64,000 bases of DNA from Ectobacillus panaciterrae DSM 19096 (GTDB lineage Bacteria; Bacillota; Bacilli; Bacillales; Bacillaceae_G). Location: NCBI RefSeq assembly GCF_000430785.1, contig NZ_AUMR01000038.1, positions 1 to 64,000 on the forward strand, given 5' to 3'. The notes beneath the pieces were generated by a model, which worked only from the letters and a program-made list of their open reading frames with translations, did no database searches and was not told where the DNA came from. Below are positions 8,983 to 63,552 of this stretch, in pieces. The position numbers and the translations under genes were made by a program. Position 1 is the stretch's first letter. Every line of letters begins with the position of its first letter.

Positions 8983-9581
8983 TACGTATTGTAATTGCAG
9001 AAGACCAGCGGATGCTTCGGGGAGCCCTCGGGGCATTGCTTGATTTGGAAGATGATATTGAAGTCGTCGGGCAAGCGGCGAACGGGGAGGAAGCCCTGAA
9101 GCTTATACAATCCATGCAGCCGGACATATGCTTAATGGATATTGAGATGCCGCTCAAGAGCGGCTTGGACGTTGCAGAGGAGCTAAGGAAGCAACAATCG
9201 CCTTGCCGCGTTATGATTTTGACGACATTCGCTCGTCCCGGTTATTTTGAGAGAGCGATGAAGGCAGGCATTCACGGGTATTTGCTTAAGGATGGACCGA
9301 GCGAGGATTTGGCGGCATCCATCCGCAATGTTATGAAAGGCAAGCGCGAGATCTCGCCGGATTTAATGTTCGGCATGTGGCAAGAGGAAAATCCGCTGAC
9401 AGATCGCGAGAAGGAGCTGCTCGTGCTTGCACGGGAAGGAAAAACGACAAATGAAATCGCAAACATGCTGTACTTATCTTCAGGCACTGTGCGCAACTAC
9501 ATGTCAGAGATTCTAAATAAGCTCGGGGCGCGCAACCGCATCGAAGCGATTGCAGCTGCAGAGGAAAAAGGCTGGATATAA
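8979..9581 (+). CDS. Response regulator, DesR/YvfU-like (NarL/LuxR family)
   Basis: The 200-residue protein has a receiver domain (acidic pocket IAEDQRM, phosphorylated Asp in CLMDIEMPLKSG, Lys of GYLLKDGPSED) and a C-terminal LuxR helix-turn-helix (LTDREKELLVLAREGKTTNE, SGTVRNYMSEIL, NRIEAI). It is very similar to DesR. It likely binds the ATGACATTTGTCAT palindrome before the operon. Its TAA stop uses the first two A residues of a family B repeat. Confidence 0.94.
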   Translation: MIRIVIAEDQRMLRGALGALLDLEDDIEVVGQAANGEEALKLIQSMQPDICLMDIEMPLKSGLDVAEELRKQQSPCRVMILTTFARPGYFERAMKAGIHGYLLKDGPSEDLAASIRNVMKGKREISPDLMFGMWQEENPLTDREKELLVLAREGKTTNEIANMLYLSSGTVRNYMSEILNKLGARNRIEAIAAAEEKGWI

Positions 9582-9711
9582 GAAAAGCGGAACCGGCTCG
9601 CTCAGGCACAGAGCCTAAGGTTCTCCGCCCTAAAAGGCGCTTTTTGCCTTTTTGTGGCGGAGGTTCTTAGGCGGCAGTGCCTAGCCGGTGGAGCTGGACA
9701 TGAAGAAAAGC
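9580..9711 (+). repeat. Family B structured repeat, copy 1
   Basis: Unit from AAGAAAAGC to CTGGACATG, followed by the AAGAAAAGC start of a further unit. Paired arms: AGGCAC with GTGCCT, CCTAAG with CTTAGG, CTCCGCC with GGCGGAG, and a terminal AAAGGCG/CTTT stem. It begins inside the stop codon of the response-regulator gene and separates it from the convergent GGDEF-EAL gene, where it may terminate transcription on both strands. Confidence 0.9.
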
Positions 9712-9718
9712 AGGATTC

Positions 9719-11731
9719 CTATAAAGAAAGCATGTTTTTTGATGCCAGCTTAATGCGGTTGGACAGCAGGACATCCCATACTTTGTCTGCGTCAACCGGC
9801 TTGCTTATATAAAATCCTTGGATTTGATCGCATTGCTGTCTGCTTAAAAAAGACCACTGTTCGTTCGTTTCCACACCTTCTGCGATGACCGTCAGCTGCA
9901 GGTTTTTGGCCATCATAATAATGGATGAAATAATCGCTTCTTCCTGCGGGTTGTTTTGAATTTCCTTAATAAATTCCCGGGCAATCTTCAATGTATGAAT
10001 CGGATACTTCGTTAAGTAAGATAAAGAAGAATAGCCCGTGCCGAAATCATCAATGGAGATTTGGACGTTCAACCGCTTTAACTGATTCAATTTTTTAATG
10101 ACTTGCTCCTCTTTTTTCATCGCGACGCCTTCTGTAATTTCTAAATCCAGCAAATGCGCCGGCAGCTTTGTTTCTTCCAGTATACTTGAAACGAGCTCTA
10201 CAAGGTTGGACTGGTTGAACTGCAGAGGAGATAAATTCACGCCCACCTTTAAATGTGCATAGCCCCTATCGTGCCACTCGATAGCTTGCTGACAAGCCGT
10301 TCGGAGAATCCATTCTCCGATAGGAATGATAAGCCCGGTTTCTTCAGCGATCGGGATAAATTCAGCAGGAGATACCATCCCAAATTTCGGATGCTTCCAG
10401 CGCAGCAATGCTTCAAAGCCTATGATTTCATGCGTTTCCATATTCACCTGCGGCTGATAATGAAGAACAAGCTCATTGTTTTGCAGAGCCTGATTCAGTT
10501 CTCCTTCTAAGAAATGCTTCTCATCCTCTACATCACTCATTTCTTGGGAATAAAATATGTATTTGTTTTTTCCGCTTGCCTTGGCTCGATACATAGCGAT
10601 ATCCGCGTTTTTCATAAGTTTTGTTACATTTGTGCCGTGAGAAGGATGAAGAGCAATTCCGATGCTTGGCGTAATTTTTAATTCATTTCCGCTGACATAT
10701 ATAGGTTCATTTAATAGCTCCAGCAAGCGCTCCGCAGTAAGCGCAGCTCCTTGTTGCGAGAAGACATCGGTGAGAAGAACCGTAAATTCATCTCCACCTT
10801 GGCGTGCTACAATATCTTTAGAGCGCAGAGATTGCTGAAGCCGTTTGCTGACCTCAATAAGCAGGAGGTCGCCGATATCATGTCCGAGACGATCATTAAC
10901 CTTTTTGAATCGGTCTAAATCAATGAACAGAACAGCTGTCATCGTTTCACGCTTCGTTGCTGTTTTCAGAGCTTCTGCCAAGCAATTCTCAAACTTTCTT
11001 CGATTCGGCAAGCTTGTGAGAGCATCGTGGAATGCCATATGCTCTACTTGCCGCTGTTTTTGCTTCAATTCTGTCGTATCCCTTGCAATGCCATACATGC
11101 CGATAGTTTTATTGCCTACCAAGGTGGGGATTAAGGTAACTTGCAAATAAGAGAACTCCTTCTCTTTGTCGCAGGCGCGTACTTCAAAAGTTTGCGATAA
11201 ACCAGTTTTCGCCTGGCGTATAGCGTCACGTGCCATATACTGATCGTCTTCTACCACATAATTCAAGAAGGATTGTCCATTTAGCTCCTCGAATGTGTAG
11301 CCTAGGATTTCCATGCAGGATGTATTGGCACTTTGGAAATTTCCACTCATATCTAAGGAAAATACGGCATCCGGATGATTTTCAAACAATGTTTTATATT
11401 GTTGCTCGCTTTTAGAAAGAGCTTGAATGCCTTCATTGACTTTATCTTCGAGCTGTTCGTTCAAGCTATGATACGTGCGAAGAAGCTGCCGGTTATCACG
11501 CCACATGAAGATTTGCCGGAAAAACAATAATGCGAAGGCCGTGCAAAGTCCTATCCTCATAAAACGATCTTGCGCTATGTCCAGCACAGTGAACTTGAAA
11601 ATAATGAGAATGTAAATATAAAGGGAAAAAAAGCGGATGTAATGCCAACTTGTAAGATACTTTGCGGAATGTACTTCCTTTAAGGTTTCCTTATGAAATC
11701 TATCCATTTCTATATACTCCATTTCTGGCAT
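9719..11731 (-). CDS. Membrane PAS-GGDEF-EAL cyclic-di-GMP enzyme
   Basis: The protein of up to 670 residues has two N-terminal membrane helices (about residues 30-75), a short coiled linker, a PAS domain (about 105-225), a GGDEF domain with intact RQGGDEF and an RxxD inhibition site (RSKD) five residues before it, then an EAL domain with EALLRW, DDFGTGYSSLSYL and EGVET. Both cyclase and phosphodiesterase signatures look active, so it could make or degrade c-di-GMP. The start is uncertain: ATG 11731 lacks a ribosome site, whereas Met7 (ATGGATAGA) has GGAG upstream. Confidence 0.93.
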   Translation of the reverse strand: MPEMEYIEMDRFHKETLKEVHSAKYLTSWHYIRFFSLYIYILIIFKFTVLDIAQDRFMRIGLCTAFALLFFRQIFMWRDNRQLLRTYHSLNEQLEDKVNEGIQALSKSEQQYKTLFENHPDAVFSLDMSGNFQSANTSCMEILGYTFEELNGQSFLNYVVEDDQYMARDAIRQAKTGLSQTFEVRACDKEKEFSYLQVTLIPTLVGNKTIGMYGIARDTTELKQKQRQVEHMAFHDALTSLPNRRKFENCLAEALKTATKRETMTAVLFIDLDRFKKVNDRLGHDIGDLLLIEVSKRLQQSLRSKDIVARQGGDEFTVLLTDVFSQQGAALTAERLLELLNEPIYVSGNELKITPSIGIALHPSHGTNVTKLMKNADIAMYRAKASGKNKYIFYSQEMSDVEDEKHFLEGELNQALQNNELVLHYQPQVNMETHEIIGFEALLRWKHPKFGMVSPAEFIPIAEETGLIIPIGEWILRTACQQAIEWHDRGYAHLKVGVNLSPLQFNQSNLVELVSSILEETKLPAHLLDLEITEGVAMKKEEQVIKKLNQLKRLNVQISIDDFGTGYSSLSYLTKYPIHTLKIAREFIKEIQNNPQEEAIISSIIMMAKNLQLTVIAEGVETNEQWSFLSRQQCDQIQGFYISKPVDADKVWDVLLSNRIKLASKNMLSL

Positions 11732-11751
11732 AAGGCTATTACATTCAAATG

Positions 11752-11779
11752 ATATTACAAAATGTAAATATAACGTTAA
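11752..11779 (-). promoter_or_regulatory. Candidate promoter of the GGDEF-EAL gene
   Basis: On the minus strand TTAACG (11774-11779), a 16-base spacer and TAATAT (11752-11757) lie just upstream of the gene. The match is moderate. Confidence 0.35.
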
Positions 11780-11814
11780 ATTAATATTACGTTTTGTTGA
11801 ATGAATATGGAGGA

Positions 11815-12011
11815 TTACATTTCAAATGCGCCATCTACAAAATCAGCATACGAGCGAAATTCCTTTTCAGATTTGGGAGAAGAGAGATGCACCTTCGGAA
11901 TGATATTTGTATGCGTCTATGTAGCAAACACCACCGGAAGCATCATTGTTTTACGGGAGAGCAGTCCCAAAGCGCCAGGGCGTGAGATATATACTCAAAT
12001 TGAATTCTCAT
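11815..12011 (-). pseudogene. uvsE: Remnant of uvsE (UV damage endonuclease), internally deleted
   Basis: Read on the minus strand, a good ribosome site (AAGAAGGAG) precedes ATG 12011 and MRIQFEYISHALALWDCSPV, which matches the UvsE N-terminus, then a stop. Further on, in another frame, [21 protein letters not shown], a typical UvsE C-terminal segment, is followed by a stop at 11815. About 80 percent of a ~320-codon gene is missing between the two parts. In B. subtilis uvsE (ywjD) lies directly downstream of ywjE (cls), exactly as here. The gene is dead. Confidence 0.85.
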
Positions 12012-12032
12012 AGATTCTTCTCCTTCTTGTTC

Positions 12033-13226
12033 TTAGAGGAAAAATGCAACTGCTGTAGCCAGCCACTCCTTGCATCGTTTCGAAAACGGAAGATTTGATA
12101 TTTCTTCCAAGGTGAGAAGCTGGGAATTCTCCAAATCTTGATCAACCTCCTTTTTCACAACTTCAATGAAAGACTTATCATAAATAAAACAATTTATTTC
12201 GTGGTTAATATATAAGCTGCGTAAATCGAAATTCGCTGTGCCGATGTCGCAAATACGTCCATCAACCATTATGATTTTTGCATGAAAAAAACCGTCTTCA
12301 AATTGATAAATAGAGCAGCCTGCACGAAGCAAAGGCCGGCAGTATGGAAGCTTTGCTTCCCGGACGAGCGGATGATCTGCTTTTTTTGGCACTAGAATTG
12401 TAATGCGGATACCGCGCTCGGCTGCGCGAAGCAAAGCGCGCTGCAGCTTGCGTCCCGGAATGAAATACGGCGTGCCGATATATAAATCATGCTCGGCTTC
12501 CTCAATCAAATCCAGAAAGGCTTGCTGCAGGTAAGCGCCGTCTGTCGGAACGAAGCGATGCAGAGCGGAGCCTTTCGCAAGGGCGGGGTAATATTTCGAT
12601 TCTTTGATCAAATCTTCTTTTGTTTCATCGCGCCAATCGTGAAGAAACTGCACCTGTAAATCCTGTACGCCTTCACCTGTAAGGCGAAGATGATAATCGC
12701 GCCAATTGCCGAGCTGCGGATCGTGCCCCAAATATTCTTCACCGATGTTAAAGCCGCCGATATAACCGATTTTACCGTCAATAATAGTAATTTTCCGGTG
12801 ATTGCGCTGATTGGCTGAATAAAATAGAAATGGCAGCCGAATCGTGTGGCAAAATGAGAAATGAACACCGTTTTCGCGCAGCTGCCGAATGGAATCTTTT
12901 GATAGATGGTGGCTGCCGATGCGATCTAACAGCAGACGCACTTCAATTCCTTGCCTTGCTTTTTCCATTAAAAGCTCCAAAAATTTATGACTAACGCGGT
13001 CATTGTTCACAATAAAGAATAAAATATGAATATGATGGCGCGCGTGTTGTATATCAGCGAATAAATCATCATAAAGCGTCTGGCCGCATGTATATAAACG
13101 AAAATCGCTATGGCGCATCGGGAATTTGCGAACCTCCGCCCGCTTTAGCTGATTTCGTCTTCCGAGACAAAAATCCACGCCGGCCCATACGACAAGCAAG
13201 ACGAGGAAGCGAAAGAAAAAAGACAT
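12033..13226 (-). CDS. ywjE: Cardiolipin synthase-like phospholipase D family protein (YwjE)
   Basis: The 397-residue membrane enzyme has one N-terminal helix (FFFRFLVLLVVWAGVDF) and two HKD motifs: HRKITIIDGKIGYIGG and HAKIIMVDGRICDIGTAN. It probably condenses phosphatidylglycerols into cardiolipin. ATG 13226 follows a strong GGAGGGGG site and gives the 398-residue length of B. subtilis YwjE; the longer in-frame reading from 13328 has no support. The gene is divergent from fadF and was followed by uvsE, now destroyed. Confidence 0.94.
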   Translation of the reverse strand: MSFFFRFLVLLVVWAGVDFCLGRRNQLKRAEVRKFPMRHSDFRLYTCGQTLYDDLFADIQHARHHIHILFFIVNNDRVSHKFLELLMEKARQGIEVRLLLDRIGSHHLSKDSIRQLRENGVHFSFCHTIRLPFLFYSANQRNHRKITIIDGKIGYIGGFNIGEEYLGHDPQLGNWRDYHLRLTGEGVQDLQVQFLHDWRDETKEDLIKESKYYPALAKGSALHRFVPTDGAYLQQAFLDLIEEAEHDLYIGTPYFIPGRKLQRALLRAAERGIRITILVPKKADHPLVREAKLPYCRPLLRAGCSIYQFEDGFFHAKIIMVDGRICDIGTANFDLRSLYINHEINCFIYDKSFIEVVKKEVDQDLENSQLLTLEEISNLPFSKRCKEWLATAVAFFL

Positions 13227-13308
13227 AAAAACCCCCCTCCTGATACACTGGTTCTTATAGTTTCGCCTGAAGAGGAAAAAAAATTCTTTTGTTGTATAAC
13301 AAAAACTG

Positions 13309-13336
13309 TTGACTGAATGCTCACTCATACTATAAT
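13309..13336 (+). promoter_or_regulatory. SigA promoter of fadF with FadR-like operator in the spacer
   Basis: TTGACT (13309-13314), 16-base spacer, TATAAT (13331-13336). The spacer region 13314-13331 matches the B. subtilis FadR operator consensus TGAATGANTANTCATTCA at 12 of 16 defined positions. This indicates repression by a FadR-type regulator that is relieved by long-chain acyl-CoA. Confidence 0.8.
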
Positions 13337-13453
13337 AAAAGTAGATAAAAAATTCAGAAGATTTTTTTGGTTCTAAATGTTTAAAAAAGGGGGGTAAAAA
13401 TTTTTACTAGTTCCTCACGCAAATCGTATACATATAAAGAGAGGGGATGAAGC

Positions 13454-15559
13454 ATGAACGGCTGGCTTCTTGTAAACTGGTTAGCATTTCTCGGCATAAC
13501 GAGTTATGGCGTGTATCTGTTTGTATACCTCATTCAAACGAGACTTGCTTACATCAAATTGGGGAAAAAGGTTGAATTCGATAACAAAGTAAAAGAGAGA
13601 TGGGAACGCGTAAAAGTGAACGTGTTCGGACAAAAAAAGCTGCTCAAAGATAAGAAAAGCGGCATTATGCACGTTATGTTCTTCTATGGATTCATTCTCG
13701 TCCAGTTCGGAGCATTAGACTTCATTTGGAAAGGCTTAGCACCAGGATCACATCTTCCGCTTGGACCACTCTACCCTGCATTCACATTCTTCCAGGAAAT
13801 TGTTACATTCGTTATTTTAATCGCTGTGTATTGGGCTTTTTATAGACGTTATATTGAAAAGCTTGTTCGCTTAAAACGAAACTTTAAAGCGGGACTTGTT
13901 TTAATCTTTATCGGCGGCTTAATGCTTTCTGTATTGTTAGGAAACGGTGCAGGCATCATTTGGCACGGTGAAGAGCTGTCATGGAGCGAGCCAATCGCTT
14001 CCGGCATCGCTTATTTATTATCCGGCATCGGCACAACAGGCGCGATCGTCATTTTCTATATCGCTTGGTGGATTCACTTAACAATTCTATTAACATTCTT
14101 AGTATACGTGCCTCAATCGAAGCACGCCCATTTAATTGCCGGTCCTGCAAACGTTTACTTCGGGCGTTTGACGAATCCGGGCAAGCTTGAAAAAATCGAT
14201 TTTGAAGATGAATCACAGGAATCCTTCGGGGTCGGAAAAATTCAAGACTTTAAGCAAACACAGCTTATCGACTTGTACGCTTGCGTAGAGTGCGGCAGAT
14301 GTACGAATATGTGTCCAGCAACGGGAACAGGCAAAATGCTGTCTCCGATGGACTTGATTGTAAAACTGCGTGACCACTTAACAGATACAGGTGCGGCTGT
14401 TACGTCCCGCACGCCTTGGGTTCCGGCATTTGCATTTGCCAATACACAAGGAAATCAGTTGGCAATGGCTGCAGGACAGCAGGAATCCGCTGCGGCGCTT
14501 GCATACAGCCCGAGCTTAATCGGCGAGGTTATCACAGAAGAGGAGATTTGGGCATGTACAACGTGCCGTAACTGTGAAGACCAGTGTCCGGTTATGAACG
14601 AGCACGTGGATAAAATTATCGACCTGCGCCGCTACCTCGTATTAACAGAAGGAAAGATGGACGCAGATGCGCAGCGAGCGATGACAAATATCGAACGTCA
14701 AGGCAACCCTTGGGGCTTAAGCCGCAAAGAACGCGAAACTTGGCGTGAAGCAAGAGAAGATGTTCATATCCCGACTGTAAAAGAAATGTCCAAAGCGGGA
14801 GAAGAATTTGAATATCTCTTCTGGGTCGGATCTATGGGTTCTTACGATAATCGCAGCCAAAAAATCGCGCTATCCTTCGCGAAGCTTATGAACGAAGCTG
14901 GCATTAAGTTTGCGATTCTTGGAAACAAAGAAAAGAACTCCGGCGATACGCCGCGCCGTCTCGGAAATGAATTCTTGTTCCAAGACATGGCAGCGAAAAA
15001 CATCGAAGAGTTTGAAAAAGCAGGCGTGAAGAAAATTGTAACAATCGACCCGCATGCATACAACATCTTTAAAAACGAGTATCCAGACTTCGGTTTAGAA
15101 GCGGAAGTCTACCATCATACAGAACTATTGGCACAATGGGTACAAGAAGGAAAACTGAAGCCGAATCACGAAGTAAATGAAACGATTACGTACCATGATT
15201 CCTGCTACTTGGGACGCTACAACGAAGTATATGAAGCGCCTCGTTCCATTTTGAAAGCGGTTCCGGGCGTAAAGGTTGTGGAAATGGAACGCAACCGCGA
15301 AACAGGAATGTGCTGCGGCGCCGGCGGCGGTCTCATGTGGATGGAAGAGCACGCAGGCACTCGCATCAACGTAGCGAGAACCGAGCAAGCTCTTGCGGTC
15401 AAGCCAACCGTTATCAGTACAGGATGTCCGTATTGCTTGACGATGATCAGCGACGGAACGAAGGCGAAGGAAGCAGAAGAGCAAGTACAAACGCTCGACG
15501 TAACAGAAATCCTAGAGAAATCTGTTATAGGCATGAATGAAAGAACACCCGCAATTTGA
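13454..15559 (+). CDS. fadF: FadF: iron-sulfur (CCG-domain) oxidoreductase of fatty-acid oxidation
   Basis: The 701-residue membrane protein has several N-terminal helices (first about 250 residues), two 4Fe-4S clusters (CVECGRCTNMC and CTTCRNCEDQC) and two C-terminal CCG heterodisulfide-reductase-type domains (DSCYLGRYNE; MCCGAGGG). It is thought to pass electrons from acyl-CoA dehydrogenase/ETF to the quinone pool. The gene heads a beta-oxidation cluster and has a FadR-type operator in its promoter. The site GAGGGGATG precedes ATG 13454. Confidence 0.95.
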   Translation: MNGWLLVNWLAFLGITSYGVYLFVYLIQTRLAYIKLGKKVEFDNKVKERWERVKVNVFGQKKLLKDKKSGIMHVMFFYGFILVQFGALDFIWKGLAPGSHLPLGPLYPAFTFFQEIVTFVILIAVYWAFYRRYIEKLVRLKRNFKAGLVLIFIGGLMLSVLLGNGAGIIWHGEELSWSEPIASGIAYLLSGIGTTGAIVIFYIAWWIHLTILLTFLVYVPQSKHAHLIAGPANVYFGRLTNPGKLEKIDFEDESQESFGVGKIQDFKQTQLIDLYACVECGRCTNMCPATGTGKMLSPMDLIVKLRDHLTDTGAAVTSRTPWVPAFAFANTQGNQLAMAAGQQESAAALAYSPSLIGEVITEEEIWACTTCRNCEDQCPVMNEHVDKIIDLRRYLVLTEGKMDADAQRAMTNIERQGNPWGLSRKERETWREAREDVHIPTVKEMSKAGEEFEYLFWVGSMGSYDNRSQKIALSFAKLMNEAGIKFAILGNKEKNSGDTPRRLGNEFLFQDMAAKNIEEFEKAGVKKIVTIDPHAYNIFKNEYPDFGLEAEVYHHTELLAQWVQEGKLKPNHEVNETITYHDSCYLGRYNEVYEAPRSILKAVPGVKVVEMERNRETGMCCGAGGGLMWMEEHAGTRINVARTEQALAVKPTVISTGCPYCLTMISDGTKAKEAEEQVQTLDVTEILEKSVIGMNERTPAI

Positions 15560-15563
15560 GAAG

Positions 15564-15590
15564 AAAAGAGGTGCGCCTGCACCTCTTTTC
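15564..15590 (+). terminator. Terminator-like hairpin after fadF
   Basis: AAAAGAGGTGC and GCACCTCTTTT form an 11-base stem with a GCCT loop. The T-run is short (TTTTC), so read-through into the downstream thiolase gene is possible. Confidence 0.7.
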
Positions 15591-15620
15591 ACAGCAGCAA
15601 CATCGAGCGAGCGTTCAATC

Positions 15621-15773
15621 AAGAAAAGCGGAACCGGCTCGTTCAGGCGCAGAACCTAAGGTTCTCCGCCCTAAAAAGCGCTTTTTGCTTTTTTGAGGCG
15701 GAGGTTCTTAGGTGGCAGCGCCTAGCCGGCAGAGCTGGACATCAAGAAAAGCGGAATCGGCTCGTTCAGCTCC
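15621..15773 (+). repeat. Family B structured repeat, copy 2 plus partial next unit
   Basis: Full unit AAGAAAAGC to CTGGACATC, then the first 30 bases of another unit ending CTCGTTCAGCTCC. Paired arms: AGGCGC/GCGCCT, CCTAAG/CTTAGG, CTCCGCC/GGCGGAG. It lies between fadF and the thiolase gene. Confidence 0.9.
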
Positions 15774-15819
15774 AAAAATGAATTCTTTCAATTTCAAAAG
15801 TAACAAAGGGGGACTTTAC

Positions 15820-17001
15820 ATGGGGAAAACAGTAATTATTGGGGCGGCAAGAACGCCTATCGGTAAATTCGGCGGTGCTTTAAAAGACGTGAAGGCGGCA
15901 GAGCTTGGGGGAACTGCCATCAAAGCGGCTTTAGAACGAGCAAATGTTATACCGACTGATGTAGAGGAAGTTATTTTCGGTACAGTTGTGCAGGGGGGCC
16001 AAGGGCAAATCCCATCTCGTCAGGCAGCACGCAATGCAGAAATTTCCTGGGAAACGCACACGGAAACAATCAACAAAGTGTGTGCTTCCGGGTTAAGGGC
16101 GGTAACGTTAGCGGATCAAATCATCCGCGCTGGCGACCAATCGCTAATCGTGGCAGGAGGCATGGAATCCATGAGCAACGCTCCTTATATTCTGAAGGGA
16201 GCGCGCTGGGGATATCGCATGGGGCATAGCGAGGTAGTGGACCTTAACATCGCAGATGGATTAACGTGCTCCTTCTCCGGTGTTCATATGGGCACATACG
16301 GAAACGAAGTGGCAAGCGAAGACAATATTTCTCGCGAAGAGCAGGATGAGTGGGCATACCACAGCCATATGAAAGCAGTAACAGCTCGTAAAGAAGGCCG
16401 TTTTGAAGAGGAAATCGTGCCTGTAACTATTCCGCAGCGCAAGGGAGACCCGATTGTCGTGGCTCACGATGAAGCGCCTCGTGAAGATACGACTGTTGAG
16501 AAGCTCGCGAAGCTGAAGCCGGTATTTGGCGCAAACGGAACAATTACGGCAGGAAATGCGCCCGGCTTGAACGACGGAGCGGCAGCACTTGTTTTAATGA
16601 GCGAAGAACGCGCGCAAGCAGAAGGCAAAACGCCGATTGCGACAATCCTCGGCCAAGCGGCAATTGCGGTAGAAGCGAAGGATTTCCCTAGAACACCGGG
16701 TTATGTCATTAACGAGCTGTTAAAGAAAACAGGAAAAACAGTAGAAGAAATCGACTTGTTTGAAATCAACGAAGCATTCGCAGCAGTTGCGATTGCAAGC
16801 AGCCGAATTGCAGGCTTGGACTTGGAAAAAGTGAACGTAAACGGCGGTGCTGTAGCGATGGGTCACCCAATCGGCGCAAGCGGCGCCCGCATCATCGTAT
16901 CCTTGATTCATGCATTAAAGCAACGCGGCGGCGGCATCGGCATCGCAGCAATCTGCAGCGGCGGCGGCCAAGGCGATGCGATCATGATCGAAGTGAAATA
17001 A
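15820..17001 (+). CDS. mmgA: Acetyl-CoA C-acyltransferase (thiolase)
   Basis: The 393-residue thiolase has the acyl-binding Cys in [12 protein letters not shown], the His in [17 protein letters not shown] and the second Cys in [13 protein letters not shown]. It cleaves or forms acetoacetyl-CoA/3-ketoacyl-CoA. ATG 15820 ([15 protein letters not shown]) with AAAGGGGGA is the true start; the in-frame extension upstream is repeat sequence. With the following dehydrogenases it forms a beta-oxidation unit resembling mmgABC. Its TAA uses the first two A residues of a family B repeat. Confidence 0.95.
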
Positions 17002-17150
17002 GAAAAGCGGAGCCGGCTCGTTCAGGCGCAGAACCAGAGGTTCTCACCCCATAAAGGCGCTTTTTGCCTTTATGTGGGTGAGGTTCTCTGGTGGCAGCGC
17101 CTAGCCGGTGGAGCTGGACATAAAGAAAAGCGGAATCGGCTCGTTCAGCT
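17000..17150 (+). repeat. Family B structured repeat, copy 3 plus partial next unit
   Basis: The unit starts inside the thiolase stop codon. Paired arms: AGGCGC/GCGCCT, CCAGAG/CTCTGG, CTCACCC/GGGTGAG. A second unit start (AAGAAAAGCGGAATCGG to TCAGCT) follows. Confidence 0.9.
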
Positions 17151-17245
17151 TTCGATGATATGGGGATGCCCGCGGGACTGGCGAAATGGCTTTATTAAAA
17201 AGGTGGAGGCAAACCCTCTCCCTCTTAAAACAAGGAGGATGAAAT

Positions 17246-19311: not shown

Positions 19312-19495
19312 CATATATACAAGTGAATAAAAAACCGTCTATTTATAGTGGGGAGAGATTAAAAGACGTGAAGAAGCGGTCAAACCTTTGTAGCGGTTCA
19401 TGCAAGGGTAAACCAGAGAGAAGAAGTATGCAATACTCCCTTTTGGTTGCACATAGCACATGGAAATGTCGAGATTATAATTCACTCATATATAG
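19312..19495 (+). repeat. Family A MITE-like repeat, copy 2, inside the acyl-CoA dehydrogenase gene pair
   Basis: TATATACAAGTGAATAAAA at the left and TTCACTCATATATAG at the right are near-perfect inverted termini. The central hairpin and the GGTAAACCAGAGAG block are conserved. The right end abuts AGGAGG, the ribosome site of the next gene, so the element lies within the operon mRNA. Confidence 0.9.
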
Positions 19496-19509: not shown

Positions 19510-20649
19510 ATGCAATTCAAACTATCAGAAGAACATGAAATGATTAGAAAAATGGTTCGCGATTTTGCGAAAAATGAAGTAGCTCCTACAGCTGCAGAGC
19601 GTGACGAAGAAGAACGCTTTGACCGCGAGCTGTTCGATAAAATGGCAGAGCTTGGTTTAACAGGTATTCCATGGCCGGAAGAATACGGCGGCATCGGCAG
19701 CGATTACTTAGCTTATGTAATTGCGGTAGAAGAATTATCACGTGTTTGTGCGTCTACTGGCGTAACATTATCCGCTCATACATCTTTAGCGGGTTGGCCA
19801 ATTTACAAATTCGGTTCTGAAGAGCAAAAGCAAAAGTATCTTCGCCCGATGGCAGAAGGGAAGAAAATCGGTGCGTACGGCTTGACTGAGCCAGGCTCCG
19901 GCTCTGATGCCGGAGGTATGAGAACGACGGCGAAGCGCGACGGCGATCACTACATTTTGAATGGCTCTAAAATTTTTATCACAAACGGCGGTGTAGCGGA
20001 TATTTATGTTGTATTTGCATTAACAGATCTTGAATCTAAACAGCGCGGCACAACTGCATTCATCGTAGAAAGCGATACGCCTGGCTTCTCCGTAGGCAAG
20101 AAGGAAAGCAAGCTCGGTATTCGTTCCTCGCCTACAACAGAGATTATGTTTGAAGATTGCCGCGTTCCTGTCGAGAACCGTCTTGGCGAAGAAGGGCAAG
20201 GCTTCAAAATTGCGATGCAAACATTGGACGGTGGCCGTAACGGTATCGCGGCACAAGCTGTCGGTATTGCACAAGGTGCATTGGATGCGGCCGTCGGGTA
20301 TGCAAAAGAGCGTCAGCAATTCGGCAAGCCGATTTCCGAACAGCAAGGAATCGGCTTTAAGCTGGCAGATATGGCAACGAGCGTAGAAGCAGCGCGTCTT
20401 TTAACCTACCAAGCGGCATGGCTTGAATCCGAAGGTCTTCCTTATGGTAAAGAATCCGCGATGTCTAAACTGTTCGCAGGAGATGCGGCGATGAAGGTAA
20501 CGACAGAAGCGGTGCAAGTATTTGGCGGCTACGGCTACACGAAGGACTATCCGGTAGAACGCTACATGCGCGATGCGAAAATCACGCAAATTTATGAAGG
20601 AACACAGGAAATTCAAAGGCTGGTTATTTCCCGCATGATTGCGAAGTAA
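19510..20649 (+). CDS. acdA: Acyl-CoA dehydrogenase (AcdA-like, second copy)
   Basis: The 379-residue enzyme has [37 protein letters not shown] and [15 protein letters not shown], all expected of short/medium-chain acyl-CoA dehydrogenases. ATG 19510 ([16 protein letters not shown]) follows AGGAGG; the longer in-frame reading runs through the family A element. B. subtilis has acdA between fadF and rpoE, as here. Its TAA uses the first two A residues of a family B repeat. Confidence 0.93.
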
Positions 20650-20770
20650 GAAAAGCGGAACCGGCTCGTTCAGGTGCAGAACCAGAGGTTCCTCTCCCTC
20701 AAAGGCGCTTTTTGCCTTTGTGTGGAGAGGGTTCTCTGGTGGCAGCACCTAGCCGGAGTAGCTAGATATG
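20648..20770 (+). repeat. Family B structured repeat, copy 4
   Basis: The unit starts in the acdA stop codon. Paired arms: AGGTGC/GCACCT, CCAGAG/CTCTGG, CTCTCC/GGAGAG. The 3' flank is degenerate (CTAGATATG). Confidence 0.88.
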
Positions 20771-27553: not shown

Positions 27554-27716
27554 AAGAAAAGCGAAGCCGGCTCGTTCAGCTCCGGAAGGCAGAGGTTCTT
27601 CCCTCATAAAGGCGCTTTTTGCCTTAATGGGGGAAGGTTCTCTGACAGGAAGAGCTAGCCGGCGGAGCTAGACAACAAGAAAAGCGAAGCCGGCTCGTTC
27701 AGGCGCAGCTAGACAA
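27554..27716 (+). repeat. Family B structured repeat, copy 5 plus partial unit
   Basis: Begins 2 bases after the pyrG stop. Paired arms: AGCTCC/GGAAGAGCT-type pairing (AGCTC with GAGCT), CAGAG/CTCTG, CTTCCC/GGGGAAG. A truncated second unit (AAGAAAAGCGAAGCCGG to GCAGCTAGACAAACC) follows, missing its core. Confidence 0.88.
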
Positions 27717-27784: not shown

Positions 27785-27993
27785 CGATAAAAATTATAAA
27801 ATTTCGCGGCAATACTTTCCTTTGTTTACAAGCCATGCTGCTCGTAGTATACGATAAACAAACGAATCAACCTGTATGCTTCTTCTTTCTGGTTTACCCT
27901 TGCATGAACCGCTACAAAGGTTTGACCGCTTCTGCACGTCGCCGGATGCTCTCTCCCCACTATAAAAGACGGTTTTTTATTCACTTGTATATA
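27785..27993 (-). repeat. Family A MITE-like repeat, copy 3 (one end diverged)
   Basis: In reverse orientation, the conserved half (GGTTTACCCTTGCATGAACC, CTATAAAAGACGG, TTATTCACTTGTATA) is intact, while the other end (27785-27840) is strongly diverged. It lies between the convergent pyrG and ywjG genes. Confidence 0.75.
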
Positions 27994-33570: not shown

Positions 33571-34842
33571 ATGAGTTTAACAATTTCTACATTAGAAAAT
33601 ATGAAATTAAAAGAGCTGTATGAACATGCGAAAGAGTTTAAAATTTCCTATTACAGCAAATTGACAAAAAAAGAATTGGTTTTTGCTATTTTGAAAGCAC
33701 AAGCAGAGAAAGAAGGATTTTTCTTCATGGAAGGCGTTCTTGAAATCATCCAATCTGAAGGATTTGGATTCTTGCGCCCAATCAACTACTCCCCAAGTTC
33801 GGAAGACATTTATATTTCCGCATCGCAAATTCGCCGATTTGACTTGAGAAATGGAGACAAAGTATCAGGAAAAGTACGTCCTCCAAAAGAGAACGAGCGT
33901 TATTTTGGACTGTTACAGGTAGAGGCAGTGAATGGAGACAATCCGGAGTCCGCGAAAGAACGCGTGCATTTTCCAGCATTAACACCACTATATCCGGATC
34001 GTCAAATGAAGCTCGAGACCGAGCCTAAAAACCTATCCACTCGCATTATGGATTTAGTTGCGCCGGTCGGCTTTGGACAGCGCGGTCTTATCGTAGCGCC
34101 GCCAAAAGCGGGTAAAACGATGCTGTTAAAAGAAATCGCGCACAGCATTACAACGAATCATCCGGAAGCGGAATTGATCGTGCTTTTAATTGATGAGCGC
34201 CCGGAAGAAGTGACAGACATCGAACGCTCCGTCGCAGGAGACGTAGTAAGCTCTACATTCGATGAAGTGCCTGAGAACCATATCAAAGTAGCGGAGCTTG
34301 TGCTCGAACGCGCTATGCGCCTTGTAGAGCATAAGAAGGACGTTATCATTCTTATGGACAGCATTACACGTTTGGCGCGTGCGTATAACCTTGTGATTCC
34401 GCCGAGCGGACGCACCTTGTCCGGCGGTATCGACCCTGCTGCCTTCCACCGTCCGAAGCGCTTCTTCGGTGCGGCCCGCAACATTGAAGAAGGCGGCAGC
34501 TTAACGATTTTAGCAACCGCTCTTGTAGATACAGGCTCCCGTATGGATGATGTAATCTACGAAGAGTTCAAAGGAACAGGCAACATGGAGCTTCATTTAG
34601 ACCGCTCCTTAGCAGAGCGCCGTATCTTCCCGGCAATTGACATTCGCCGCTCCGGTACGCGCAAAGAAGATTTGCTGATCCCAAAAGAGCACTTAGACAA
34701 GCTTTGGGTCATCCGCAAAACAATGACAGATACGCCGGACTTCACAGACCGTCTGCTGCGTACGCTGCGCAATACAAAATCAAACGAAGAATTTTTCCAA
34801 ATGATTACCCAAGAGCAAAAAGGCGTAGTCACGATGAAATAA
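33571..34842 (+). CDS. rho: Transcription termination factor Rho
   Basis: The 423-residue hexameric RNA helicase has the Rho N-terminal helix-hairpin ([20 protein letters not shown]), the cold-shock-like RNA-binding domain ([20 protein letters not shown]), Walker [16 protein letters not shown], the [17 protein letters not shown] strand and the Q-loop region [19 protein letters not shown]. The ribosome site before ATG 33571 is weak (only GTGGTG-like), suggesting low or regulated translation. A family B repeat starts at its stop codon. Confidence 0.98.
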
Positions 34843-34964
34843 AGAAAAGCGGAGCCGGCTCGTTCAGCTCCGGAAGGCAGAGGTTCTCTCCCCAAAAAGG
34901 CGCTTTTTGCCTTTATGGGGGGAGGTTCTCTGACAGGAGGAGCTAGCCGGCGGAGCTGGACATG
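34842..34964 (+). repeat. Family B structured repeat, copy 6a
   Basis: Starts at the last base of the rho TAA. Paired arms: AGCTCC/GGAGCT, CAGAG/CTCTG, CTCCCC/GGGGGG with a symmetric GTTCT internal loop. Directly followed by copy 6b. Confidence 0.92.
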
Positions 34965-35215
34965 AAGAAAAGCGGAGCCGGCTCGTTCAGGTGCAGAACC
35001 AGAGGTTCTCTCCCCAAAAAGGCGCTTTTTGCCTTTATCCCGCTCTAAGCGTCCGTAACAGGATTGCTTAGACAAGATGAACAAACGGACGCTAAGAGCC
35101 CGATTGATTCAACTAACATCCGTGGAGGAAAAATCATCTCCACGGATGAAGTTTCATCTTATGGTGGCAGCACCTAGCCGGAGGAGCTGGACACCAAGAA
35201 AAGCGGAGCCGATTC
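34965..35215 (+). repeat. Family B structured repeat, copy 6b, with its right core replaced
   Basis: The left half (AAGAAAAGCGGAGCCGG, AGGTGC, CCAGAGGTTCTCTCCCC, AAAGGCG) and the outer right arm (GGTGGCAGCACCTAGCCGG) are normal. The inner right arm is replaced by about 124 bases (35038-35161) with two other hairpins: GCTCTAAGCGTCCGT/AACGGACGCTAAGAGC and ATCCGTGGAG/CTCCACGGAT. A partial third unit starts at 35196. Confidence 0.85.
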
Positions 35216-35348: not shown

Positions 35349-35392
35349 AACTCTGTTTCTAAAATGATTCAGGGCGGAAGGAGATGAAAAGA

Positions 35393-35812: not shown

Positions 35813-35995
35813 CTATATATGAGTGAATGATCATTTCGACATTTTCATGTGCTATGTGCAACCAAAAGGGAGTATGGTATACTTCTTCTCTCTTTATCCT
35901 TGCATGAACCACTACAAAGGTTTGACCGCTTCTGCACGTCGCCGGATGATCTCTCCACTATAAAAGACGGTTTTTTTATTCACTTGTATATATAT
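35813..35995 (-). repeat. Family A MITE-like repeat, copy 4
   Basis: Reverse orientation, complete: CTATATATGAGTGAATGAT at the left and ATTCACTTGTATATATA at the right are terminal inverted repeats; the CCTTGCATGAACCACTACAAAGG hairpin is conserved. It lies between rpmE and tdk. The 35712-35810 stretch before it has weak resemblance to a diverged end of copy 3. Confidence 0.9.
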
Positions 35996-38944: not shown

Positions 38945-39126
38945 CTATATATGAATGATTTATGATTTCGACATTTCAATGTGCTGTGTATAGAGGCATT
39001 GGCGCTTTCTTCCTATCTATGGTTTACCCTTGCATGGACCACTGCAAGGGTTTGACCGCTTCCGCACGTCGCCGAATGCTCTCGCCCCACTGTAAAAAGA
39101 CGGTTTTTTTATTCAGTTGTATATAG
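38945..39126 (-). repeat. Family A MITE-like repeat, copy 5
   Basis: Reverse orientation, complete; ends CTATATATGAATGATTTATG and ATTCAGTTGTATATAG. The flanks (AACGAGCCAGCTTCGCTTTTC on the left, CTCCGCTTTTCTT on the right) look like ends of family B units, so this copy also appears to lie in a decayed family B array. Confidence 0.88.
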
Positions 39127-42899: not shown

Positions 42900-42975
42900 A
42901 GCCGCTCCTTGATGGGGCGGCTCTTTTTTGCGGATATAAAAAAAGCACGGCAGAACGCCGTGCTTTCTTTCATGT
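42900..42975. terminator. Two consecutive terminator hairpins
   Basis: AGCCGCTCC/GGGGCGGCT followed by CTTTTTT (42900-42931), then AAAGCACGGC/GCCGTGCTTT followed by CTTT (42947-42975). The second, read on the minus strand, can serve the flavin-reductase gene. Confidence 0.75.
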
Positions 42976-43010
42976 CCAGCCCCTGAACGAGCCGGCGCCG
43001 CTTTTCCTTT
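42971..43010 (-). repeat. Family B repeat, copy 7, core-deleted
   Basis: On the minus strand AAGGAAAAGCGGCGCCGGC, CTCGTTCAG, then directly GGGGCTGGACATGAAAG: the central hairpin is missing. It starts right at the stop codon of the minus-strand flavin-reductase gene, keeping the orientation rule of the family. Confidence 0.75.
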
Positions 43011-46540: not shown

Positions 46541-46790
46541 CTGTCCAGCTCCATCGGCTATATACAACTGAATAAAAAAACCGTCTTTTTATAGTGGGAA
46601 AGAGCATCCGGCGGAGCATAGAAGCGGTCAACCCCTTTTCCTGCCCCATACAAGGGTAAGAGAGAGAAAGCGAGTGCAGGATCAGGATGCCTTTTGTTCT
46701 GTATAGCAGTTCCTATGTCGAAATTACAAATCATTTATATATAGGTGCAGAACCAGAGGTTCTTCACCTGAACGAGCCGATTACGCTTTT
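46541..46790 (-). repeat. Family B repeat interrupted by a family A element
   Basis: GTCCAGCTCCATCGGCTA (46543-46560) and GGTGCAGAACCAGAGG...ACCTGAACGAGCCG (46744-46785) are the two sides of a reverse-oriented family B unit with a shortened core; family A copy 6 separates them. Confidence 0.85.
46561..46741 (+). repeat. Family A MITE-like repeat, copy 6, nested; flanked by TA
   Basis: TATACAACTGAAT...ATCATTTATATA. The rebuilt empty site is CGGCTAGGTGC, as in intact family B copies; the filled site reads CGGCTA-element-TAGGTGC, consistent with a TA target duplication (46559-46560 and 46742-46743). Internal blocks are conserved but the hairpin is altered (CCCCTTTTC / CAAGGG). Confidence 0.85.
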
Positions 46791-54933: not shown

Positions 54934-55157
54934 ATGCAAAAAAAACAGCGCAACCCAATGAAGGCTTATGCTTTAATGACCGGCATCCTTTCCCAGCTCG
55001 TAGGTTCCATTTTGGTCGGAATTTTCTTGGGCAAGTGGATTGACGGCAAGCTTAATACGTTTCCCTTATTTCTCATTATTGGATTATTGCTAGGTCTTGC
55101 AACAGGTACTTACGCAATGACTGTGCTTATTCAAAAATTTAACTCAGGAGATCAGCA

Positions 55158-55161
<4 letters not shown>
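54934..55161 (+). CDS. atpZ: AtpZ/AtpI-family small membrane protein
   Basis: The 75-residue protein has two membrane helices (AYALMTGILSQLVGSILVGIF and FPLFLIIGLLLGLATGTYAM). The family is found at the start of Bacillus atp operons as the extra gene atpZ and has been tied to magnesium handling and assembly. Its TGA overlaps the atpI ATG. Confidence 0.88.
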
Positions 55162-56280
<1,119 letters not shown>

Positions 56281-56310
56281 TAAATTTCAGTAAACTATAC
56301 TTTTTTCTAA

Positions 56311-56550
<240 letters not shown>

Positions 56551-56568
56551 GGAATGCTCCTTACTATA

Positions 56569-56604
56569 AATGGCGAAGATCGTTTGCAAGCCTTCTTCGC
56601 CATT
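56569..56604 (+). promoter_or_regulatory. Intercistronic hairpin after atpE
   Basis: AATGGCGAAGA pairs with TCTTCGCCATT around a 14-base loop. Without a T-run it probably protects the 3' end of atpE mRNA or attenuates transcription rather than terminating it fully. Confidence 0.6.
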
Positions 56605-56611
56605 GCTTTAT

Positions 56612-56768
56612 AAGAAAAGCGGAGCCGACTGCCCAGATGCGGAAGCAGAGGTTCTTTCCCCAGAAAGGCGTTTTTTGCCTTTTTGTGGGGAAGGTTCTCT
56701 GCAGGAGCATCTAGGAGGCGAAGCTAGACATCAAGAAAAGCGGAGCCGACTGCCGGCGAAGCTGAATA
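56612..56768 (+). repeat. Family B structured repeat, copy 8, inside the atp operon
   Basis: Unit plus partial second unit between atpE and atpF. Paired arms: AGATGC/GCATCT, CAGAG/CTCTG, CTTTCCCC/GGGGAAG. Co-directional with the operon. Confidence 0.9.
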
Positions 56769-56822
56769 CATGCCAAAAATTGAGGCTTTTTTTTGTCAAG
56801 TTGAAACTACTGAAGGGAGTGA

Positions 56823-59381
<2,559 letters not shown>

Positions 59382-59382
<1 letters not shown>

Positions 59383-59410
59383 AACAAGCGGAGCCGGGTT
59401 AGCTCCGAAG
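59382..59410 (+). repeat. Family B relic between atpA and atpG
   Basis: ACAAGCGGAGCCGGGTTAGC resembles the unit start and outer arm; the core is missing. It begins at the atpA stop codon. A hairpin AGAGAGTAGG/CCCTATTCTCT follows at 59421-59447. Confidence 0.6.
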
Positions 59411-59480
59411 TAATAAATAAAGGAGAGAGTAGGCTCGCCCTATTCTCTTCGTATGCCTACTTCCGACTAAAAGGTGGTGA

Positions 59481-60347
<867 letters not shown>

Positions 60348-60436
60348 AATACTTACTCTAGTAAAGTACATCAATTGGGTTTTTATTACGGTCGCCTCTA
60401 GGGGCTTCCTGTCAGTAAAAACGGGACCAAAAATAA

Positions 60437-61861
<1,425 letters not shown>

Positions 61862-61870
61862 CAGGTCTAG

Positions 61871-62284
<414 letters not shown>

Positions 62285-62292
62285 TTACAAAG

Positions 62293-62326
62293 CCGCAAAG
62301 GGTTTCCCTTTGCGGTTTTATTTTTA
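62293..62326 (+). terminator. atp operon terminator
   Basis: CCGCAAAGGG, TTT loop, CCCTTTGCGG, TTTTATTTTT. Confidence 0.93.
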
Positions 62327-62327
62327 G

Positions 62328-62456
62328 GGAGTATGGTATGCTCCTTCTCTCTGGTTTCTCCTTGCATGAACCACTACAAAGGTGTGAGCGCTTCTGCACG
62401 TCGCCGGATAATCTCTCCCCACTATAAAAGACGCTTTTTTATTCACTTGTATATAT
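62328..62456 (-). repeat. Family A MITE-like repeat, copy 7, truncated
   Basis: The half with CTTGCATGAACCACTACAAAGG, CTATAAAAGACG and TTATTCACTTGTATATA is present in reverse orientation; about 55 bases of the other end are missing, cut next to the atp terminator. Confidence 0.85.
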
Positions 62457-62573
62457 TTGAAAGTGTCGGGGCAAGAACAGACTGAGGCAGCGGCTTAATA
62501 TAATAGAAAGACAATAAGCATTGACGGCAGCAGGATGCTTTCTTTTCATGAAGAAAGAGTAAAGCAGGCACAT

Positions 62574-62602
62574 TTGTGCGTGTAATTGATGTTTTGTATA
62601 CT
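62574..62602 (+). promoter_or_regulatory. Candidate promoter of the Uma2 gene
   Basis: TTGTGC (62574-62579), 17-base spacer, TATACT (62597-62602), giving a very short leader to the ribosome site at 62611. Confidence 0.4.
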
Positions 62603-62623
62603 GAAGTAAAGGAGTTCATGAAT

Positions 62624-63187
62624 ATGCCGGATGCGAACTTGCGAAAGTATACGTATGAAGATTATGAGCAGTGGGAAGGCCGTTGGGAACTCATACAGGG
62701 AATCCCATATAATATGACGCCAGCTCTGTCCACTAAGCATCAATATGCGGTAGGGGAACTATACGGACATTTGCGAGCTTTTTTCTCAAGCCGCGGCTGT
62801 CATGTGTTCGTCGCTCCTTTTGATGTTCGTTTCAGCGAAACAGATGATTATTCTCAGGCGGATACGGTTGTACAGCCGGATATTTCTGTATTCTGTCATA
62901 GGAAGCAGCTGGATCAATCGGGAGCGAAGGGAGCTCCCAGTTTGACGGTAGAAGTACTATCTCCTTCAACTGCTGTAAAGGACCGGAATAAAAAGTTCAA
63001 GCTATACGAAAAGTATGGGGTAAAAGAGTATTGGATTGTAGATCCCGTACATGAGACAGTAGAAATATATAATTTACAAGAGGGGAACTATCATCTAGGA
63101 GAGGTGTACGGCACAGAGCAAATACTGCAGTCCATTCACTGGGAGGAACTGCAGATTCCGATCGAATCCTTGTTTCTCTCATTTTAG
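62624..63187 (+). CDS. Uma2 family (DUF820) PD-(D/E)XK nuclease-like protein
   Basis: The 187-residue protein has the restriction-endonuclease fold core: Glu near WELIQGIPY, VVQPDISVF (Asp), LTVEVLSPST (Glu), then RNKKFKLYEKYGVKEYWIVD. Uma2 proteins are common in multicopy families, and their biological role is unclear. ATG 62624 is spaced 9 bases from AAGGAG; ATG 62618 and GTG 62576 are less likely. It forms a single-gene unit with its own terminator. Confidence 0.88.
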   Translation: MPDANLRKYTYEDYEQWEGRWELIQGIPYNMTPALSTKHQYAVGELYGHLRAFFSSRGCHVFVAPFDVRFSETDDYSQADTVVQPDISVFCHRKQLDQSGAKGAPSLTVEVLSPSTAVKDRNKKFKLYEKYGVKEYWIVDPVHETVEIYNLQEGNYHLGEVYGTEQILQSIHWEELQIPIESLFLSF

Positions 63188-63228
63188 CTTTTTCGACAGC
63201 GTCGTATCCCTTAGGAAATTTCATATAC

Positions 63229-63266
63229 AAAAAACACATTCTGTTGCCGTGGAATGTGTTTTTTTA
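63229..63266 (+). terminator. Terminator of the Uma2 gene
   Basis: AAAAAACACATTC pairs with GAATGTGTTTTTTT around a 10-base loop. Confidence 0.88.
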
Positions 63267-63274
63267 TTTCTTTA

Positions 63275-63552
63275 AGCTGAGCGAGCCGGTTGCGCTTTTC
63301 TTGGTGTCCAGCTCCATCGGCTAGCTCCTCCTGTCAGAGAACCTCCCCCCATAAAGGCAAAAAGCGCCTTTTTGGGGAGAGAACCTCTGCCTTCCGGAGC
63401 TGAACGAGCCGATTCCGCTTTTCTTGGTGTCCAGCTCCACCGGCTAGGCGCTGCCGCCTAAGAACCTCCGCCACAAAAAGGCAAAAAGCGCCTTTTAGGG
63501 CGGAGAACCTTAGGCTCTGCGCCTGAGCGAGCCGGTTGCACTTTTCTTGGTA
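63275..63552 (-). repeat. Family B structured repeat, tandem of two units (copies 10a, 10b)
   Basis: On the minus strand unit one carries arms AGGCGC/GCGCCT with CCTAAG/CTTAGG, and unit two AGCTCC/GGAGCT with CAGAG/CTCTG, joined by ACACCAAGAAAAGC. A partial third start is at the left edge. Here no gene stops next to the element on its own strand. Confidence 0.9.

What the first reader, a model, noticed from the sequence alone, without database searches (positions are those of the whole stretch)
9580..63552. Family B: interspersed ~125-bp palindromic element with strong base-pair covariation
Full or partial copies occur at 9580, 15621, 17000, 20648, 27554, 34842, 34965, 42971, 46541, 56612, 59382 and 63275 (two units). 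All follow one plan: AAGAAAAGCGG start, a CCGGCT/AGCCGG outer stem, a bulge CGTTC, a variable arm, an inner arm, a symmetric GGTTCT internal loop, a third arm, an AAAGGCG stem, and GCTGGACAT end. The variable arm reads AGGCAC/GTGCCT, AGGCGC/GCGCCT, AGGTGC/GCACCT, AGCTCC/GGAGCT and AGATGC/GCATCT in different copies; the inner arms CCTAAG/CTTAGG and CCAGAG/CTCTGG change together too. Paired changes in several independent stems mean the folded RNA or DNA form is selected, while loop and bulge are fixed.
Basis: partly seen in the sequence, partly recalled or inferred. Interest (0 to 1): 0.85.

Follow-up and report, generated by a model that had tools for sequence, protein, structure and literature searches.

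The report
Stop-codon-docked hairpin repeat of Bacillus relatives
A roughly 123-base DNA repeat that folds into one long hairpin is scattered in more than a hundred copies through this bacterium's genome and through many related genera, and copies that lie behind a gene read in the same direction mostly start right at that gene's stop codon.

Summary
The repeat is real: nine full units, one broken unit and fragments in the window, at least 135 units in this Ectobacillus genome. On 90 distinct copies 97.1% of pair cells form standard pairs and 24 of 40 pairs change on both sides. Wobbles favour the forward strand (G-U 64, A-C 23), equally in docked and undocked copies, so the folded forward strand itself seems to be what is kept. 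The model hits 47 of 60 genomes; matching left arms are named in about 14 genera. New: behind a same-strand gene the repeat starts at the stop codon (26 of 37 arrays here, 29 of 41 in named relatives). Four docked sites are empty in relatives, with the stop at the same codon. Terminator-like hairpins are found more often beyond the array than before it. Arrays gain, lose and homogenise tandem units. Best reading: a non-autonomous, hairpin-borne mobile repeat that settles behind stop codons and before terminators. No mobilising enzyme was found: IS200-type genes do not track it by eye and none of 34 such loci holds a unit. A 3'-UTR RNA role is the main rival. No Rfam match; my text searches showed no description.

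The parts
9580..9702 (+). full hairpin unit docked on the TAA of a response-regulator gene (8979-9581), followed by a short 5'-end fragment from 9703
   Evidence: R1 152 bits; ORF end 9581; Pfam
15621..15743 (+). full unit, 61 bases after the previous stop (not docked), followed by a partial unit from 15744
   Evidence: R1 146.9 bits; distance
17000..17122 (+). full unit docked on the TAA of a thiolase gene, followed by a partial unit from 17123
   Evidence: R1 149.4 bits; no repeat at this stop in three relatives; Pfam
20648..20770 (+). full unit docked on the TAA of an acyl-CoA dehydrogenase gene
   Evidence: R1 141.1 bits; no repeat at this stop in three relatives; Pfam
27554..27676 (+). 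full unit 2 bases after the stop of the CTP synthase gene, followed by a hairpin-deleted unit from 27677
   Evidence: R1 119.5 bits; no repeat at this stop in three relatives; Pfam
34842..34964 (+). full unit docked on the stop of the rho gene
   Evidence: R1 127.9 bits; no repeat at this stop in three relatives; Pfam Rho domains
34965..35195 (+). second tandem unit, interrupted in its right arm by another sequence
   Evidence: R1 30.3 bits for the left part; right part at 35162
42971..43008 (-). hairpin-deleted remnant (left arm joined to right end)
   Evidence: sequence; no R1 hit
46541..46560 (-). about 20 bases of a unit's right end fused to another repeat family
   Evidence: sequence; no R1 hit
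56612..56732 (+). full, divergent unit, not docked, followed by a hairpin-deleted unit from 56733
   Evidence: R1 111.3 bits
63305..63425 (-). full unit, second of a tandem pair, with a further 5' end at 63277-63302
   Evidence: R1 126.1 bits; BLAST places
63428..63548 (-). full unit, first of the tandem pair
   Evidence: R1 149 bits; BLAST place

Best explanation
A non-autonomous mobile repeat. One unit of about 123 bases (AAGAAAAGCGG ... GCTGGACAT) folds as a single long hairpin on its forward strand. That folded strand, as single-stranded DNA or as RNA, is probably what an unidentified enzyme recognises (inferred). New copies settle in intergenic DNA, often on the 5' side of a terminator hairpin. 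If the gene upstream is read in the same direction the copy mostly starts at its stop codon, so the 3' UTR and not the gene takes the insertion. Once in place, units multiply, are lost and become alike by recombination between tandem copies; loss of the hairpin leaves short left-arm remnants. Shown: dispersal, fold, docking, sites without the repeat in relatives, tandem turnover. Inferred: movement by an enzyme, the form recognised, and gain rather than loss at the empty sites.
For: At least 135 units in 102 arrays in one genome; 47 of 60 genomes hit, this one included. Copies at different places up to 97.6% alike, median nearest 92.8%, while most syntenic blocks differ by about 20% from the sister species. 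Four docked window sites lack the repeat in three relatives, with the gene ending at the same codon; gain here is simpler than three losses. Docking: 26 of 37 arrays with a same-strand upstream gene at -3..+3, none at 4-60 (80 of 102 arrays examined); 29 of 41 in named relatives, and 29 of the 35 within 400 bases against 1.3 expected. Terminator-like hairpin found within 150 bases downstream in 24 of 80 arrays against 3 hits in the 80 upstream flanks; 18 of 93 against 3 in named relatives. Forward fold: G-U 64, A-C 23, alike in docked (18:6) and other copies (46:16), as expected if the fold matters for the repeat and not for the host transcript. Turnover and homogenisation within arrays between E. 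antri and its sister: 19 of 20 loci compared.
Against: No mobilising gene was found: Y1 transposase (PF01797) has no hit in the one-contig sister genome with 43 unit hits, and R1 finds no unit in 34 Y1 loci (some of these come from genomes without any unit hit). No target-site duplication was recognised by eye. All 19 loci compared between the two closest genomes are shared at least as a remnant, so no fresh insertion was caught. The extra docked unit of E. antri after the gene matching window 57868-59382 is no clean gain: the sister keeps a left-arm-like remnant there. 53 of 80 arrays are not docked and do not sit on hidden reading frames either, so one target rule does not cover all. The terminator detector found nothing downstream in 56 of 80 arrays. 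No match in plasmid or phage records to the one unit tried.
Confidence: 0.5

Rival explanations
1. A 3'-UTR RNA device. Directly behind the stop codon the hairpin, whose main stem starts about 10 bases after the stop, acts on the mRNA: it blocks 3' exonucleases, shapes termination, or hinders the terminating ribosome as REP sequences near stop codons are reported to do in E. coli (recalled). Docking would then be kept by selection.
For: Docking across eight named genera; forward-strand wobble excess; main stem start seen in the alignment.
Against: Most arrays are not docked: 53 of 80, and 30 of 80 lie antisense to both neighbours; yet undocked copies keep the fold and the wobble bias equally. 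The five docked window genes are unrelated in function (response regulator, thiolase, acyl-CoA dehydrogenase, CTP synthase, rho), and relatives do without the repeat at four of them (the fifth was not compared).
Confidence: 0.25
2. No selected fold: the covariation comes from DNA processes. Arm-to-arm copying inside a palindrome and recombination between units keep the arms complementary, and the repeat is passive debris.
For: Strong homogenisation inside arrays between two sister genomes; correction of imperfect palindromes by copying between arms is known (recalled). The wobble excess is smaller in the relatives' alignment (72:51).
Against: Arm copying would not by itself favour G-U over A-C (64:23; unpaired transitions 4.8-6.7%) nor keep the one-sided bulge and the GGTTCT motif nearly fixed. 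It does not explain docking.
Confidence: 0.15
3. A transcription insulator: read on the reverse strand the unit is a terminator-like hairpin followed by CCGCTTTTCTT, placed behind the terminator of the facing gene to stop read-through.
For: The downstream neighbour faces the array in 58 of 80 arrays of this genome; GAAAAGC, a very constant block, is T-rich on that strand; a terminator-like hairpin is found beyond some arrays.
Against: The T tract is short and follows a 3-pair stem with an internal loop; the wobble bias favours the other strand; the downstream neighbour is read the same way as the array in 18 of 80 arrays here and 31 of 93 in named relatives.
Confidence: 0.08

Closest known systems
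bcr1-bcr3 of the Bacillus cereus group (passages of PMC6542083 and PMC3446304 read)
   Same: Interspersed repeats (the bcr set spans 100-400 bp) described as MITE-like, bcr1 averaging 39 copies per strain, often in UTRs or inside operons.
   Different: bcr1 is described as restricted to the B. cereus group and its mobility as tied to a TTTAT motif; among the 80 left flanks printed I see TTTAT at the junction twice. No stop-codon docking is mentioned in the passages read.
REP/BIME palindromes with RAYT transposases
   Same: Extragenic palindromes in high copy, in clusters; an effect on translation next to stop codons is reported (recalled, Liang and colleagues 2015, not held; the one review passage I saw, PMC12320835, speaks only of RNase R and REP mRNAs).
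   Different: REPs are 20-40 bp with a GTAG or CGTC tag (title and abstract start of PMC3733652, listing); this unit is about 123 bases with another end, and no unit lies in 34 loci of the transposase family.
MRSC-65-2 motif (passages of PMC11109978 read)
   Same: A single long stem with strong covariation, often dozens of copies per genome, judged a selfish element whose DNA form may matter.
   Different: It carries repeated UYCCGG, which the consensus lacks on either strand (by eye); reported from diverse phyla; no docking is mentioned in the passages read.
Bhal-1 and Bhal-2 stem-loop families of Bacillus halodurans (table passages of PMC2267715 read)
   Same: Stem-loop families of tens of copies in a Bacillus relative.
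   Different: 74 and 76 bases, the second noted as containing CRISPR repeats; their sequences were not seen, so kinship is untested.

Membership tests
REP/BIME with RAYT | 20-40 bp palindrome with GTAG or CGTC tag | tested here: not met
   unit of about 123 bases, left end AAGAAAAGCGG
REP/BIME with RAYT | flanks or co-occurs with a Y1 transposase | tested here: not met
   R1 finds no unit in 34 Y1 loci; G003 has 43 unit hits and no Y1 hit
bcr1 | restricted to the B. cereus group | tested here: not met
   found in Ectobacillus, Rossellomorea, Cytobacillus and others
bcr1 | TTTAT motif at the ends | tested here: inconclusive
   seen at 2 of the 80 left junctions printed, by eye; right ends not checked
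MRSC-65-2 | single long covarying stem in many copies | tested here: met
MRSC-65-2 | repeated UYCCGG | tested here: not met
   absent from the consensus on both strands, by eye
MITE | terminal inverted repeats | tested here: inconclusive
   in this genome a right-end tail TTTTATACTTTCTTA mirrors the left TAAGAAAA; 39 of 80 arrays have a loose match within 174 bases, some by chance; 64 genome matches against 23 for the control, but the tail also ends another repeat family, and no shared tail stood out in named relatives
MITE | target-site duplication | tested here: inconclusive
   none recognised by eye in the flanks; no clean empty site from a close relative
intrinsic terminator | GC-rich stem directly followed by a U tract | tested here: inconclusive
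   forward strand: no; reverse strand: short T tract after a 3-pair stem
any Rfam family | score at or above the gathering threshold | tested here: not met
   only the L31 leader in the window; two sub-threshold hits of unrelated families on one unit

The most novel reading that the evidence does not exclude
A mobile element whose insertion is steered by translation ends: a folded RNA, or DNA copied from it, is joined at mRNA stop codons or near the 3' ends of transcripts. The stop codon itself would be a preferred target shared across a bacterial order.
Probability: 0.1. Interest if true: 0.9.

Novelty: new variant of a known kind. Interest (0 to 1): 0.62.

Why it matters
Short interspersed palindromes are common in bacteria, but I know of few with a long covarying hairpin, a wide range over many genera and an exact positional rule (recalled, not surveyed). 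Docking on stop codons gives a sharp, testable clue to how such repeats move or what they do to mRNAs, and the homogenising arrays offer a natural system for separating selection on a fold from DNA-level correction of palindromes. It would also add a family to Rfam-type annotation, where it is now missing.

Tried and rejected
IS200/IS605 or RAYT mobilisation: PF01797 counts across 60 genomes do not follow unit counts by eye (no correlation was computed; G003, G009 and G012 have 43, 27 and 23 unit hits and no Y1), and none of 34 Y1 loci holds a unit. Other transposase or reverse-transcriptase families were not searched. Plasmid or phage carriage: no match with one unit as query. Rfam: none. A replication-strand rule looked strong in G003 (19 of 20 arrays on the C-rich strand), but the window's plus strand is G-rich and carries most of its units forward, and in this genome local skew goes with context (docked 14 G-rich, 13 C-rich; other 9 and 44), so I did not adopt it. 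Hidden small ORFs under undocked arrays: stop triplets there (20 of 53) have open frames no longer than control stops. A forward promoter at undocked left ends: no excess of -10-like sites in 52 flanks. Reading through the stop into the unit: considered and dropped without a test. Presence/absence pairs among the 120 named stretches: four candidate gaps, none a clean insertion of one array into an empty site. Text searches for the repeat's letters and for repeats of this kind listed nothing that I recognised as this repeat; one search listed 30 of 125 papers. A passage of PMC12306157 only tabulates B. subtilis.
Full report
WHAT IS THERE. The window belongs to a 5.41-Mb genome in 189 contigs. 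Its genus is that of E. antri: the same-genus genome G001 is Ectobacillus antri SYSU K30001, since the named record L324 is identical to G001 sequence over 3141 bases. The reported repeat is real. A 31-copy alignment gives the plan AAGAAAAGCGG, outer stem, one-sided bulge, variable arm, inner arm, GGTTCT motif, inner hairpin, and back to GGAGCTGGACAT. RNAalifold predicts 40 pairs, 17 with both sides changed and kept. Model R1 built from it finds 135 units in the genome, grouped in 102 arrays of 1 to 4 units; only 150 candidates were scored, so 135 is a floor. In the window it finds 9 full units and one broken one; the places 42971, 46541 and 59382 are remnants at most.

THE FOLD. On 92 aligned matches of this genome (90 distinct rows; 70 sources given) 97.1% of 3491 cells pair, 24 of 40 pairs have changes on both sides, no shuffle of 500 reaches the observed values, and slid structures pair 34-49%. 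The alignment was fitted to the model, which favours it somewhat. Leaving out three columns where G-U is the rule, wobble-type cells are G-U 64 and A-C 23. On the opposite strand these would swap, so the forward strand looks like the one whose fold is kept. In unpaired columns the four transitions run at 4.8-6.7%, so a mutational bias does not explain this. The ratio is alike for docked (18:6) and other copies (46:16). Copies are related, so these counts are not independent; in the alignment of relatives' copies the excess is smaller (72:51, one poorly aligned column giving 21 of the A-C cells). The GGTTCT motif pairs with itself through G-U pairs on the forward strand.

DOCKING. I fetched flanks for 80 of the 102 arrays (mainly those with a unit above 100 bits; the other 22 were not examined). 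With a simple codon-model gene finder, 37 arrays have a same-strand gene upstream. The distance from its stop to the array is -3 to +3 in 26 (18 at -2, where a genomic T and the unit's AA make TAA), none lies at 4-60, and the other 11 lie at 61 to 1309. By a second count (ORFs of 90 codons or more) 27 of 80 arrays are docked. In them a pattern search found 93 arrays away from stretch ends and with distinct left flanks (arrays near stretch ends were dropped uncounted); 41 have a same-strand upstream gene, and in 29 the stop lies at -1 to +5 of GAAAAGC, the next values being 37 and 105. They come from Rossellomorea, Cytobacillus, Bacillus, Lysinibacillus, Ureibacillus, Robertmurraya, Metabacillus and Ectobacillus. 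By their left flanks at least seven of the 29 fall into three shared places (L304/L366, L347/L376, L330/L375/L384), which leaves about 25 different ones. Uniform placement in the gap would dock 1.3 of the 35 arrays within 400 bases; observed 29. Arrays whose upstream neighbour is antisense (37 in this genome, 43 in the named set) show no such rule.

SITES WITHOUT THE REPEAT. Syntenic stretches of three relatives (mostly 70-91% identical blocks) lack the repeat right after the thiolase, acyl-CoA dehydrogenase, CTP synthase and rho genes, and their genes end at the same codon. One of them, G006, has an antisense left-end fragment further down behind the dehydrogenase gene. The site at 9580 could not be compared, and at 56612 two relatives keep a short hairpin. 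Pfam matches run to the C-terminal end of thiolase and of the dehydrogenase, so these genes are whole. E. antri has a docked unit behind the gene that matches window 57868-59382 (ATP synthase alpha, recalled), where its sister G003 has no full unit but a left-arm-like remnant. A terminator-like hairpin is detected within 150 bases downstream in 24 of 80 arrays, against 3 hits in the upstream flanks; 18 of 93 against 3 in the named set (a strict detector, so 56 of 80 show none). Arrays thus lie behind a stop codon, or a facing gene's start, and often before a terminator.

TURNOVER. E. antri and G003 are mostly 92-95% identical in the compared region. Of 20 G003 arrays, 19 were found in E. antri, each with at least a remnant at the same place. 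Unit number differs in many (for example 5 against 2 full units, 3 against 1), unit types are rearranged, and variants special to a place are shared by its units, often including partial ones. This is concerted evolution within arrays. It warns that covariation here may be helped by recombination.

RANGE. R1 hits 47 of 60 genomes searched, this one included, in 33 of 45 genera (58 candidates per genome scored, so counts are floors). The left arm alone is named in about 14 genera. No plasmid or phage record matched the one unit tried. No Rfam family matches.

HOW IT MAY WORK. The best-supported account is a non-autonomous mobile hairpin repeat that lands behind stop codons and before terminators and then lives as a tandem array. 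That copies spread within the genome after the species parted is shown indirectly (copies at different places up to 97.6% alike). That an enzyme recognises the folded strand is inferred. Y1 transposases do not fit; other families were not searched. Docking remains the open point: random insertion with later selection would need many lost insertions, while a pure stop-codon target leaves the undocked arrays unexplained. A 3'-UTR RNA role is the chief rival; the equal fold and wobble bias of undocked copies speaks against it as the sole reason.

KNOWN KINDS. It works like REP/BIME and bcr-type repeats and resembles the covarying selfish motif MRSC-65-2 (passages read), but fails a tested feature of each, so I do not file it with them. 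I call it a new variant of a known kind.

Noticed in passing
window 228-341, 19348-19461, 27874-27993, 35813-35993, 38945-39123, 46559-46675, 62336-62455: A second repeat family (core GAAGCGGTCAAACC..., ends like TATATACAAGTGAATAAAAAACCGTC and ATTCATATATAG); a third, related kind elsewhere in the genome starts near GAGAAAAACCG or TAAGAAAAACCG and ends AATTTTATACTTTCTTA.
   Followed up: partly
L186 near base 1500 (own genome): A roughly 40-base sequence with little more than TAAGAAAAACTG and TTTTATACTTTCTTA, looking like bare ends of that third repeat kind; L202 joins a left end of the present family to its right part.
   Followed up: partly
window 35030-35160: The second unit behind rho is interrupted by a sequence (GCTCTAAGCGTCCG ... 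CGGACGCTAAGAGC ... CATCTTATG); similar letters appear in arrays on contig C4 near 26.6 and 28.4 kb, so another repeat seems to enter this one.
   Followed up: no
window 35351-35383: L31-Firmicutes ribosomal protein leader (Rfam RF03156).
   Followed up: no
G003 (L206-L225): 19 of 20 arrays lie on the C-rich strand; plus-strand arrays at 0.63-2.22 Mb, minus-strand arrays at 2.82-3.45 and 0.07-0.09 Mb: a possible replication-strand bias confounded with gene direction.
   Followed up: partly
L278, L375 downstream of arrays: The terminator-like hairpin there resembles the inner hairpin of a decayed unit, as if a unit had become the terminator (by eye).
   Followed up: no
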